Assembly (NCBI GenBank): GCA_903844645.1
Contig: CAIMUP010000032.1
Span: forward strand, 1 to 34,811
Reading direction: 5' to 3'
Length of the DNA stretch: 34,811 nt
Source: an uncultured Bacteroidota bacterium
Lineage (GTDB): Bacteria > Bacteroidota > Bacteroidia > AKYH767-A > JABDAW01
A program made the position numbers and the translations under genes. The notes below the pieces were generated by a model. That model had not been told where the DNA came from. It did no database searches and saw only the letters and a list, made by a program, of their open reading frames with translations. Below, one piece after another: positions 1 to 34,811 of this stretch (position 1 is the first letter of the stretch; each line of letters begins with the position of its first letter).

Positions 1-315
1 ACCAAGGTGTTTTACTTTTGTACCGAGGTGTTTTACTTTTTTACCGAGGTGTTTTACTTTTTTACCTTGGTAAAAAAGTAAATCACCTTGGTAAAAAAGT
101 AAAAAGACGAGGTAAAAAAGCAAAAAGACGAAGTGTTTCACTTTTATGACGATAAGATGCATCGAAATGACGAATAAAAAACTTGGAATGACGAATCATT
201 AAAGAGGAATGACGACTCTTTTTCTTGGAATGATGAATCATTCAAGGTGAATGACGAATGATTCACTTGGAACGACGAATCATTCAAGGTGAATGACGAA
301 TGATTTTACTTTAAT
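1..315. repeat. 21-bp-period intergenic array A (open at left edge)
   Basis: Fifteen consecutive 21-base units run in unbroken register from base 1. Units 1-3 begin ACCAAGG/ACCGAGG and continue with a T-rich segment; units 4-5 carry nearly the reverse complement of that sequence; from unit 5-6 onward almost every unit starts GACGA, followed by a largely variable 16 bases. Units 10-14 alternate between GAATCATTC and GAATGATTC cores. The array starts 32 bases beyond the stop codon of the response regulator and continues off the window. No credible gene or terminator is seen in 1-347. Confidence 0.85.
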
Positions 316-3369: not shown

Positions 3370-3593
3370 CTGGGGATTGAAAATCCCCAGTGAAGGATTT
3401 GCAATCCCCAGTCGTGGCGTAGTAAGCCCCAGTTGTGGCGTAGTAAGCCCCAGTTGTGGCGTAGTAAGCCCCAGTTGTGGCGTAGCAAGCCCCAGTTGTG
3501 GCGTAGTAATCCCCAGTTGTGGCGTAGTAATCCCCAGTTGTGGCGTAGCAAGCCTCCATCGTGAATTCCAGAGCCTTATTTAGAGGAATGGAA
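3370..3593. repeat. 21-bp-period intergenic array B with conserved tail
   Basis: Nine units of exactly 21 bases occupy 3370-3558. The first is a palindrome: arms CTGGGGATT and AATCCCCAG around a 3-base loop. The second is a decayed version, and units 3-9 share GTGGCGTAG followed by YAAKCCCCAG. The array is followed by a 32-base tail (3562-3593) that recurs, inverted and with 29 of 32 bases identical, at 11100-11131 beside a shorter array of the same palindromic unit. Open frames through the array on both strands simply follow from a period divisible by three. The region 3159-3673 has no gene; the array lies 81-304 bases beyond the stop of hflX. Confidence 0.9.
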
Positions 3594-6889: not shown

Positions 6890-7078
6890 TTTTGACAAAA
6901 CAGCAACTTGTTTCGACAAAACACGAAGCTGGTTTTCCTAAAAAGCTTATTGGTTTTCCTAAACAGTTTCGTGGTTTTCCTAAACAGTTTCGTGGTTCTT
7001 TAAAACAGTTTCGTGATTCTTCAAAACAGTTTCATGATTCAACAAAAAAGCTTCGTGGTTTATTAAAACAGGTTTCGA
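6890..7078. repeat. 21-bp-period intergenic array C
   Basis: Nine consecutive 21-base units, all in register. The first two contain TTTTGACAAAAC/TTTCGACAAAAC, the next ones GTTTTCCTAAACAGTTTC, and the last decay toward GTTTATTAAAACAGG. A and T runs within each unit are partly complementary. The array lies in the 453-base gap 6735-7187 between the YdjM-type gene and sufA; the remaining sequence shows only the upstream hairpin and the sufA promoter. Confidence 0.88.
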
Positions 7079-7155
7079 TTTGGATCAAGTTTATCGGTAT
7101 TTCTGTGAAAGAAAATCTTGAGATTACAGCCCTCGAAAATGTCGCGGCATTTTTG

Positions 7156-8969: not shown

Positions 8970-8996
8970 GCGAATCAGAACTTAGATAATAATTCT

Positions 8997-9050
8997 CATC
9001 ATCGTCGTGTTGCAGCCCCGTAAATACGGGACTATCACACGACGATGACG
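8997..9050 (+). other. Nested inverted repeat downstream of sufB
   Basis: Outer arms 8997-9010 and 9037-9050 pair over 12 continuous bases (CATCGTCGTGT region) plus one mismatch and one further pair. Inside lies a second hairpin, CCCGTA AA TACGGG (9017-9030). There is no T tract after the stem. It stands between the sufB stop and the true terminator, so it would form a structured 3' UTR. Confidence 0.65.
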
Positions 9051-9200: not shown

Positions 9201-9457
9201 GTGTAAAGGTCATAAAACGGGATCTCTTTTTTGAAAAGGAGATCTCTTTTTTGAAAAGGAAGTCTCTTTTTTGAAAAGGAGATCTCTTTTTTGAAAAGGA
9301 AGTCTCTTTTTTGAAAAGGAAGTCTCTTTTTTGAAAAGGAAGTCTCTTTTTTGAAAAGGAAGTCTCTTTTTTGAAAAGGAAATCTCTTTTTTGAAAAGGA
9401 GATCTCTTTTTTGAAAAGGAAGTCTCGTTTCATAAAACGGAGTCTCGTTTCTGTTTT
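9201..9457. repeat. 20-bp-period intergenic array D
   Basis: Ten near-identical 20-base units (9221-9420) of the form RRTCTCTTTTTTGAAAAGGA, in which CTCTTTT and AAAAGGAG can pair. On both sides stand edge units containing CATAAAACGG (9211-9220 and 9431-9440), followed by GATCTC or AGTCTC. It is the only array with a 20- rather than 21-base unit. It lies in the 610-base gap 8970-9579, together with the sufB hairpin, its terminator and the promoter of the next gene. Confidence 0.93.
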
Positions 9458-10089: not shown

Positions 10090-10161
10090 TAAATGAGAAA
10101 ACAACCGGACAGCAGAAGAGGGAAGTTGTCAGGATTAATTTTTTCATCATCCTTTTATGAT

Positions 10162-10181
10162 AGCTCCCTTCTTGGGGAGCT
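10162..10181 (+). other. Hairpin downstream of the GldM-C-like gene
   Basis: Arms AGCTCCC and GGGAGCT around a short loop. No T tract follows, so it is at best a weak terminator or an mRNA 3'-end structure before the sufC promoter. Confidence 0.4.
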
Positions 10182-10230
10182 GCAATAAAACGATGCTACT
10201 TACCCTCCTCATTAAGCCCCAAAAGATTCG

Positions 10231-11099: not shown

Positions 11100-11177
11100 C
11101 TTCCATTCTTCTGAATAAGGCTCTGGAATTTCCAATTGGGGATTTCTAATCCCCAGTTGTGGATTTGAAATCCCAAT
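11100..11177. repeat. Short degenerate relative of array B, inverted
   Basis: About two 21-base palindromic units (11136-11156 with TTGGGGATT/AATCCCCAG, then 11157-11177) preceded by a 32-base stretch at 11100-11131 that matches the tail of array B (3562-3593) in reverse complement at 29 of 32 positions. It lies between the convergent gene ends of sufC and the RND pump. Confidence 0.85.
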
Positions 11178-11182
11178 CCACA

Positions 11183-18621: not shown

Positions 18622-18649
18622 TGACAGGAGCTGAAACGCCCCTGTCAGG
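18622..18649. other. Hairpin with CTGACAGG/CCTGTCAG arms
   Basis: Perfect 8-bp arms around a 12-base loop, just before array E. A related pair of CCTGACA/TGTCAGG arms lies at about 18558-18586. Neither has a T tract. They may be decayed units of the neighbouring array. Confidence 0.5.
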
Positions 18650-18660
18650 ATGCTCGGACA

Positions 18661-18807
18661 GTCTTGTAAGGATAGAAGACCGTCTTCTAAGGATAGAAGA
18701 CGGTCTTCTAAGGATAGAGGACGGTCTTCTAAGGATAGAGGACGGTCTTGTAAGGATAGAAGACCGTCCTGTAAGGATAGAAGACTGTCTTGTAAGGATA
18801 AACTGTC
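18661..18807. repeat. 21-bp-period intergenic array E
   Basis: Seven 21-base units in register. Each has GTCTTC or GTCTTG, then TAAGGATA, then GAAGAC or GAGGAC, so most units are small hairpins with a 6-bp stem and 8-base loop. The last unit (18787-18807) is degenerate. It lies in the 523-base gap 18517-19039; the stretch 18808-19039 after it holds only a weak AGCCGA/TCGGCT inverted repeat. The nearest gene end is that of the gene at 19040. Confidence 0.9.
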
Positions 18808-19039
18808 AAAATGTTGCCTCGAACGACCTTTTTTGTCGGTTTAACAGTATAAAGGTTCAAAACCTTGGTGCTATTATTAATACATTTCAGTTCAAAACAA
18901 CCGCGAAATGTTGAAAACGCCTCTTTTTTGGACATCAAAGTATATCATTTGAAGTTCAGCCGAAACGCCTTTTGCCTGATCGGCTGTAATGATAGGGAAT
19001 TGGAGGGAGTGTTTATTATTGGATTATGGAAAGTATGAT

Positions 19040-31130: not shown

Positions 31131-31413
31131 TTTGGAGATAAATCATAAAATTCCGGACATAGAAACCGATTTTTTGGAGATAAGGCTCGGGATTTTGGAG
31201 ATTGTATGCCGACATTTGGAGATTCGGACGAATAGTTTGGAGTTTCATACGAGTTATTCTTTCCGGAAATTCATCCCCGTCTCCAAATCTTTGATTAATG
31301 TCTCCAAACGACCGATCTGAATCTCCAAACTTCGGAGCTAAAACTCCAAATAATCCCCAAACGACTCCAAATAGTTGATATAAAGCTCCAAAAGGTTGAT
31401 ATAAAACTCCAAA
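31131..31413. repeat. 21-bp-phased array G with internal reversal of the core
   Basis: TTTGGAG begins at 31131, 31173, 31194, 31215 and 31236 (a decayed TCCGGAC fills 31152). After a centre holding TTCCGGAA (31261-31268) the reverse complement CTCCAAA begins at 31281, 31302, 31323, 31344, 31365, 31386 and 31407. All steps are 21 bases (or 42). The 14 bases between cores differ from unit to unit. In RNA each left core could pair with a right core. The gap 31030-31660 also contains a possible promoter (TTG at 31537, TACTTTTA at 31556-31563); no gene was accepted there. Confidence 0.92.
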
Positions 31414-31660
31414 CTCTTAGACGGAAAATCCGCATTATGCGCTGTAAATGAGGCTATTTGAAAACGGAGGTAAAATTGGGGGGTCAAGGATTCGTTTTTT
31501 CCTGCTTTTGGCTAATGAAATTCCCCTTAAAAAACATTGTTTTGCCAAGTTTTTATACTTTTACCGCGTTGAACAAAAAGGGAGTTCCTGAAAATCCCTC
31601 AAAGAGTAAGGCGCGGAAACCGAAAAGCGAAGAGAGTAGGCACGGAATAAATATTTAATA

Positions 31661-32212
31661 ATGAAACTTACAAAACTAAAAACACTACTTTTTACCTTCT
31701 TGATAGCGACCGCATTATTTGGGAGTAATCAAGCACCATCATCGGGCAACGCGAACCCTGCGGAAGGGAATTCGGCACCGTCCTCTGCGTCTCCTCCTAC
31801 GATTAATACACCGCCTCCATCGCCGATTAACTCGGTCGTGAATGCCGATCAACCGCCCGAAGCACCGTCTGAATTAAAACAGTTTATCTTGCCGGGTATG
31901 GTATTGTTTTTTGGACTTGCCATCTTTATTTTACTGTCTTTTAAGAACCGGCATAACCATACGAGCGACTTAAAGATAGAGAGTTTTACATTAATTATAA
32001 TAGGGGTATTATTTATTATATCTACCACCAGTTCGTCTAACTTTGCACAGAATGTTGTTCCGCTTTATGCCCCTGCATTTGGGCTTCTCGGAACTATTGC
32101 GGGATATATTTTGGGCAAAAGTTCGGAACCTGTATCAACCAAGAAGGAATTGGCAATCCCTTCTAAAAAAGACGCCTCTATATTTCCATCTAAAGAAACT
32201 ATTGAACCATAA
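31661..32212 (+). CDS. Small membrane protein with Pro/Ser-rich N-terminal segment
   Basis: A 183-residue protein, family not recognised. Signal peptide (MKLTKLKTLLFTFLIATALFG), an exported Pro/Ser/Asn-rich segment (about 25-70), three membrane helices (about 75-91, 107-123, 132-150) and a short polar tail. First of three closely spaced co-directional genes: the next gene starts 10 bases after its stop and purB 18 bases later. Function unknown. Confidence 0.8.
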   Translation: MKLTKLKTLLFTFLIATALFGSNQAPSSGNANPAEGNSAPSSASPPTINTPPPSPINSVVNADQPPEAPSELKQFILPGMVLFFGLAIFILLSFKNRHNHTSDLKIESFTLIIIGVLFIISTTSSSNFAQNVVPLYAPAFGLLGTIAGYILGKSSEPVSTKKELAIPSKKDASIFPSKETIEP

Positions 32213-34576: not shown

Positions 34577-34811
34577 TTACTTCTGCACTACGAACTTCCC
34601 TCTTGTGCTTTCTTTTTCGCTTCTTACTTCATAGAAATAAATGCCTGCGCTCCAGGTGGAAATAGAGATGGTATTATCAATGCCGCAGAGGTTTTCTTTA
34701 TAAACTACAGTACCCAGAAGGTCGGTGATAAGCAAGGTTTCTGGGGAGGTGCTGGTGCTGTGGTGAATGTTGAGAAGGGTGGTGGCGGGGTTGGGATAAA
34801 CAGAAATACCA
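34577..34811 (-). CDS. C-terminus of a T9SS-secreted protein (partial)
   Basis: The last 78 codons of a gene entering from the right edge. The tail begins ISVYPNPATTLLNI, continues LLITDLLGTVVYKE, SISTWSAGIYFYEVR and ends GKFVVQK: a type A C-terminal sorting domain (VYPNP motif) of the type IX secretion system. The protein would be exported across the outer membrane and released or anchored by the Por machinery. The nature of the cargo lies outside the window. Confidence 0.9.
   Translation of the reverse strand, partial: GISVYPNPATTLLNIHHSTSTSPETLLITDLLGTVVYKENLCGIDNTISISTWSAGIYFYEVRSEKESTRGKFVVQK

What the first reader, a model, noticed from the sequence alone, without database searches (positions are those of the whole stretch)
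1..315. Unbroken 21-bp register through a change of core sequence
Array A keeps a 21-base step over fifteen units although the core changes from ACCnnGG to GACGA about a third of the way and orientation reverses around unit 4. After that only the first five bases are conserved while the rest varies. Copying by slippage should preserve whole units; here selection, or a mechanism, keeps the spacing and a short anchor.
Basis: seen in the sequence. Interest (0 to 1): 0.75.

Follow-up and report, generated by a model that had tools for sequence, protein, structure and literature searches.

The report
Genome-wide 21-base ruler between genes
In an uncultured Bacteroidota lineage, most wide gaps between genes hold one array of roughly ten units whose sequence differs from gap to gap but whose step is almost always 21 bases (two turns of the DNA helix), which suggests an unknown process that builds or keeps DNA by spacing rather than by sequence.

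Summary
Positions 1-315 hold fifteen 21-bp units in unbroken register. Units 1-3 and 4-5 are reverse complements about the ACCnnGGT core; from unit 6 an AATGACGA anchor is kept while the rest varies. In 663 kb of this genome I found 153 arrays at step 21/42, against 1-5 at steps 19, 20, 22 or 23. Most are unrelated in sequence. They lie between genes, usually one per wide gap, typically 170-300 bp long, in all gap orientations. Three other MAGs share the pattern; a same-family genome and most sampled genomes of the order do not. In 704 of 710 unit intervals the step is an exact multiple of 21 (the rest off by 1) despite 1,959 substitutions. About 45% of arrays contain in-register inverted copies, against 4% of permuted controls. 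No reverse transcriptase was found, and only a fragment of a REP-type transposase. Best reading: a process working in two-helical-turn steps copies units in both orientations, and arrays are kept as phased boundary elements between transcription units. Machinery and function are inferred, not shown. I found no described repeat class defined by step alone, within a limited open-access search.

The parts
1..63 (+). Array A, units 1-3, forward ACCnnGGTGTTTTACTTTTTT type; array continues beyond the contig's left end
64..105 (-). Array A, units 4-5: reverse complement of units 1-3 in the same 21-bp register, pivoting on the ACCTTGGT core (centre 67.5)
   Evidence: 19/21 inverted identity; 10-125 self-inverted 83% no gaps
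106..147 (+). Array A, units 6-7: GACGA anchor joined to an inverted-type body (unit 6) and a forward-type body (unit 7), the transition units
148..315 (+). Array A, units 8-15: AATGACGA anchor every 21 bp with variable 13-bp bodies; ordered units shared with arrays on C6 and C14
348..977 (-). LuxR-type response regulator gene whose 3' end abuts array A; its orthologue in MAG JABDAW (G002) is also followed by a 21-bp array, of different sequence
3370..3578 (.). 21-bp array, unit CCCCAGTTGTGGCGTAGTAAG
6898..7085 (.). 21-bp array, unit AAACAGTTTCGTGGTTCTTCA
9221..9440 (.). exceptional array with a 20-bp step, unit TCTCTTTTTTGAAAAGGAAG
11109..11178 (.). short 21-bp array in a convergent gap
18641..18818 (.). 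21-bp array, unit GACGGTCTTGTAAGGATAGAA
24921..25177 (.). 21/42-bp array in a divergent gap; two alternating units, each with its own palindrome centred 21 bp apart (GCGAGCGTTCGC, imperfect; CAGGAAACTTCCTG)
31279..31438 (.). anchored 21-bp array: CTCCAAA conserved every 21 bp, remaining 14 bp largely unrelated

Best explanation
Array A is one of roughly 900 (extrapolated) intergenic arrays in this genome that are defined by a 21-bp step, two turns of B-DNA, and not by a sequence. The explanation I think most likely has two parts. First, a process that works in two-helical-turn steps, probably guided by a DNA-binding assembly with that pitch, copies short units along the DNA in either orientation and exchanges them between arrays, so sequence turns over fast while the register stays. 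Second, one array of about ten units is kept in most wide intergenic gaps because phased, often dyad-symmetric sites form a boundary between neighbouring transcription units (protein filament or supercoil/cruciform sink). Shown: the step, the register, in-register inversion, cassette exchange, distribution, turnover between species. Inferred: the ruler, any protein, the boundary function, and selection on the spacing.
For: Lag spectrum over 663 kb: 12,509 intergenic positions at lag 21, at most 193 at any other lag from 8 to 41. 153 arrays at step 21/42 against 1, 5, 4, 1 at 19, 20, 22, 23. Of 219 arrays in two genomes 139 have no relative in the set. Register: 704/710 steps exact, six off by 1, with 1,959 substitutions; chance of 6 or fewer if indels were 1 per 15 substitutions (assumed) is about 1e-47. 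In-register inverted self-matches in 45% and 41% of arrays against 3.7% and 2.3% of unit-permuted controls, with plain cases on C14 and C8. Dyad enrichment z 9.1 and 4.7, none in other intergenic DNA; paired columns vary less (0.13 against 0.18) and variability is mirror-symmetric (0.21 against 0.02). G000 gaps of 450 bp or more: 28/74/7 with 0/1/2+ arrays against Poisson 52/35/22. Spans peak at 168-294 bp, short arrays are not in excess, and perfect free-standing two-copy 21-bp duplications outside arrays were not found. Same pattern in G001, G002 and lake MAG G041.
Against: The 20-bp array at 9221-9440 (10 units) and 22-bp steps in a few G002 arrays do not fit a strict helical-phase requirement. 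Orthologous gaps lacked an array in several of the window's cases examined, so no given gap needs one. Underdispersion is weak in G002 (p 0.01 length-scaled, 0.19 flat). No motif common to arrays was found, unusual for protein sites. A/T tracts are not in 10.5-bp phase inside units. No compensatory change within dyads. No protein was identified. An indel-tolerant alignment counted 177 indel events for 2,861 substitutions in G000, all in 45 of 140 arrays, so the ratio depends on method.
Confidence: 0.42

Rival explanations
1. Mutational ruler only: a lineage-specific replication or repair process (hairpin or fork template switching with two-turn geometry) produces 21-bp direct and inverted copies, and arrays have no function; they survive only between genes.
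For: Unit sequences are unrelated between loci and species; pervasive inverted copies; ts/tv only 0.71 and complement transversions in excess (852 against 602) in G000, as inversions would give; several orthologous gaps have no array; no SbcD above cut-off in any of 12 genomes of the order, so the main hairpin nuclease seems missing.
Against: Near absence of register shifts against many substitutions; mostly one array per gap and a peaked length; few very short arrays; SbcD is missing order-wide while dense arrays are limited to a few lineages.
Confidence: 0.36
2. RNA-level elements: bidirectional terminators or structured untranslated regions built from 21-nt hairpin units.
For: Arrays fold much more stably than unit-permuted controls on both strands (mean z about -2.5 to -2.9); arrays lie outside coding sequence.
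Against: As frequent in divergent as in convergent gaps; no compensatory pairing; no reason for an exact 21-nt step in RNA; no Rfam match to any array in the window.
Confidence: 0.1
3. Ordinary VNTRs made by slippage, or a mobile repeat family (REP/BIME, MITE, CRISPR-like, retroelement-made).
For: TRF calls them tandem repeats; some arrays, array A included, belong to small dispersed families.
Against: Slippage does not fix one unit length for unrelated sequences; most arrays share no sequence; no RVT_1 in G000 or G002; only one fragmentary Y1 transposase match in G000.
Confidence: 0.07
4. Assembly artefact.
For: The window and several other contigs begin or end inside such arrays.
Against: Most arrays lie inside contigs with divergent units and unique flanks, in four separate MAGs.
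Confidence: 0.02

Closest known systems
Borg tandem repeats (giant archaeal extrachromosomal elements; PMC9879509)
   Same: Many tandem-repeat regions scattered through one genome, unrelated in sequence, arising independently, nearly absent from the host genomes
   Different: Borg unit lengths vary, units are perfect, about half lie in genes, A-enriched; here one fixed step, diverged units, between genes, with in-register inverted copies
TAACTGA direct repeats of marine Beggiatoaceae (PMC4679880)
   Same: Abundant intergenic direct repeats through a genome (abstract)
   Different: One shared heptamer; here sequence differs from array to array
REP/BIME elements with RAYT transposases
   Same: Intergenic, palindromic, repeated (own knowledge)
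   Different: One sequence family per genome, RAYT-dependent; here no common sequence family and only a fragmentary Y1 transposase match in G000
Iterons and plasmid centromeres (ParR/parC)
   Same: Direct repeats of about 20 bp phased to the helix that organise a protein assembly (own knowledge)
   Different: One or few loci per replicon, one sequence recognised; here hundreds of arrays with unrelated sequences
Short template-switch mutations at quasi-palindromes
   Same: Create inverted copies between short inverted arms (own knowledge)
   Different: No fixed 21-bp step, no arrays

Membership tests
Ordinary VNTR / minisatellite | Head-to-tail repeats of one unit | tested here: met
   TRF
Ordinary VNTR / minisatellite | Unit length free to differ between loci | tested here: not met
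   Lag spectrum and array counts by lag
REP/BIME | Shared palindromic sequence family across loci | tested here: not met
   139 of 219 arrays without a relative
REP/BIME | Intact RAYT (Y1) transposase in the genome | tested here: not met
   One partial match in G000
CRISPR array | Conserved repeat separated by unrelated spacers of constant length | tested here: inconclusive
   31279-31438 and units 8-15 of array A look so, but repeats are only 7-8 bp and many bodies are variants of neighbours; cas genes not searched
DGR / retroelement-made repeats | Reverse transcriptase | tested here: not met
   No RVT_1 in G000 or G002, (G002 is only 58% complete)
DGR / retroelement-made repeats | Adenine-specific substitutions | tested here: not met
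   Rates by base 0.12-0.16 in G000
Borg-type tandem repeats | Pervasive, sequence-unrelated, independently arising arrays | tested here: met
Borg-type tandem repeats | Perfect units of variable length | tested here: not met
   Median consensus identity 0.90, fixed step
Iteron-like phased protein sites | Step near a whole number of helical turns | tested here: met
   21 bp, deviations only by 1 in G000
Iteron-like phased protein sites | Common recognition motif | tested here: not met
   No motif shared by most arrays
Iteron-like phased protein sites | Cognate binding protein | not testable with these tools
   Needs pull-down or footprinting

The most novel reading that the evidence does not exclude
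These bacteria have a dedicated system with a two-helical-turn ruler that writes and rewrites arrays between genes by copying 21-bp units in either orientation, independent of sequence: a repeat class defined by geometry, not by a motif.
Probability: 0.35. Interest if true: 0.92.

Novelty: categorically new. Interest (0 to 1): 0.8.

Why it matters
Repeat classes in bacteria are normally recognised by a shared sequence and explained by slippage or a mobile element. Here a large class shares only a step of two helical turns, and its units are copied in both orientations. If a ruler exists, it is a new way for DNA to be copied or organised; if the spacing is selected, it points to a chromosome-wide boundary structure between transcription units. 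Either way the question is testable, because spacing can be changed without changing sequence, and relatives without the arrays allow a search for the responsible gene.

Tried and rejected
A-tract curvature: AA/TT dinucleotides are anti-correlated at 10-11 bp inside units, so simple bending is not supported. Hairpin RNA with compensatory changes: compensated double changes were no more frequent than with partners taken from other units. Common motif inside or beside arrays: only weak enrichments such as AGTTG/CAACT. Reverse transcriptase or hypermutation: no. REP/RAYT: no intact gene found. Loss of mismatch repair: MutS is present in G000 and G001. SbcD is missing in the whole order, so its absence is at most permissive. 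Orthologous gaps between sampled parts of G000 and G002: only three usable pairs; two had an array in G000 only, one in neither. Literature searches found no description of a fixed-step, sequence-free intergenic array class, but the library is open-access only and matches exact words.

Full report
What is there. The window is the start of contig C32 of an uncultured Bacteroidota genome; the nearest named record found is soil MAG JABDAW01, 93% identical in the response regulator beside the array, held here as G002. Array A fills 1-315 and runs off the contig's left end. Its fifteen units step by exactly 21 bp; lag-21 identity is 0.684 against at most 0.377 in shuffles. Units 1-3 and 4-5 are reverse complements in the same register about the ACCnnGGT core (19/21). 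Unit 6 carries GACGA with the inverted-type body, unit 7 GACGA with the forward-type body; from unit 6 on, AATGACGA is kept and bodies vary. So the change of core is a mosaic of anchors and bodies.

It is not alone. TRF found arrays with a 21- or 42-bp period across the window, unrelated in sequence. I took 663 kb of this genome and 459 kb of G002. The lag spectrum has one peak at 21 and its multiples: 12,509 intergenic positions at lag 21 in G000, at most 193 at any other lag from 8 to 41. Counting arrays gives 153 at step 21/42 against 1-5 at neighbouring steps, about 23 per 100 kb, or some 890 by extrapolation to 3.8 Mb. They lie between genes; most apparent genic cases are short open frames probably made by the array itself (inferred from ORF size). 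They are found in co-directional, convergent and divergent gaps alike. In gaps of 450 bp or more, 28 have none, 74 one, 7 more than one, against a Poisson expectation of 52, 35 and 22; the effect is weaker in G002. Spans peak at 168-294 bp.

Sequence is free, step is not. Of 219 arrays, 139 have no relative in the set. The sister MAG has a 21-bp array downstream of the same response regulator gene with a different sequence. A gap after sufB holds a 20-bp array here and a 21-bp array of other sequence in G001, while other orthologous gaps hold none. Within arrays, 704 of 710 unit intervals are exact multiples of 21, six are off by 1, none by more, against 1,959 substitutions in G000. If indels were one per 15 substitutions, an assumed ordinary ratio, about 131 would be expected. 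This is partly favoured by detection at lag 21, and an indel-tolerant alignment gives a less extreme ratio, but neighbouring lags show almost no arrays.

Units are copied in both orientations. In 45% of G000 arrays and 41% of G002 arrays a 42-bp stretch matches the reverse complement of another stretch of the same array at 70% or more, against 3.7% and 2.3% of arrays with permuted unit columns. Clear examples are C14 46850/46871 and C8 38873/38894. Units are enriched for dyad symmetry, unlike other intergenic DNA, and the dyad-paired columns are the more conserved ones. Differences between units have ts/tv 0.71 with an excess of complement changes, as inversions and cassette swaps would produce. 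Array A shares units, in part in the same order, with arrays on C6, C14, C91, C29 and C98, on either strand, nearly always without gaps.

Who has it. G001 and G002 (same genus) and lake MAG G041 have it. G003 (same family) has one array in 67 kb, and other genomes sampled in the order have none or one per sample of about 20-40 kb.

How it may work. The generator must have a near-fixed 21-bp step, because repeats of other lengths above 14 bp are almost missing. Two helical turns is the obvious physical ruler (inference from B-DNA geometry). No reverse transcriptase was found in G000 or G002, only a fragment of a Y1 transposase in G000, and SbcD was not found in the order, which would leave hairpins uncut. 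Whether arrays are also functional is open: mostly one per gap, peaked length and strict register favour function; absence from several orthologous gaps, lack of a motif and the 20-bp array speak against. I therefore give the combined reading 0.42 and the mutation-only reading 0.36.

Relation to known systems. Borg tandem repeats are the nearest: pervasive, independent, unrelated arrays, but with variable unit length, perfect units and many in genes. Beggiatoaceae repeats share one heptamer. REP/BIME, CRISPR, iterons and DGRs each fail or leave open a defining feature (membership table). I found no paper describing a class defined by step alone, within a limited library.

Noticed in passing
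window 8986-9050 and 10130-10200: Two copies, in inverted orientation, of a dispersed hairpin (TTGCAGC..hairpin..CTATCA) found at dozens of places in G001 and G002; they bracket an apparent 1.2-kb insertion between sufB and sufC that holds the 20-bp array and a 169-aa putative secreted protein gene; in G003 sufB and sufC lie about 30 bp apart.
   Followed up: partly
window 34591-34811: Stretch at the contig's right end repeated at up to 95% identity in G001 and G002; it reads on the minus strand as a type IX secretion C-terminal sorting domain (my reading of the sequence).
   Followed up: partly
G002 C1:3558, C1:24703, C2:25387, C13:16472: Heptamer arrays of ATAGTGA/TCACTAT (15 runs of 2 or more in 459 kb of G002, 1 in 663 kb of G000), stepping by 28 and 35 as well as 21; they recall the TAACTGA heptamers of Beggiatoaceae.
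   Followed up: no
G000-G021 (12 genomes): No SbcD match above cut-off in any of 12 genomes of the order; MutS2-like matches are missing in G000, G001 and G003 but present in several other genomes.
   Followed up: no
window 31610-31642: DUF805b cis-regulatory RNA (Rfam RF02914, 36.9 bits) just upstream of the gene at 31661.
   Followed up: no
G000 C13:63363-63680: A whole 21-bp array plus its flanks forms one long inverted repeat (GTCGAGATATTGAAACAATGAATCGTACC ... its complement), a cruciform-like structure.
   Followed up: partly
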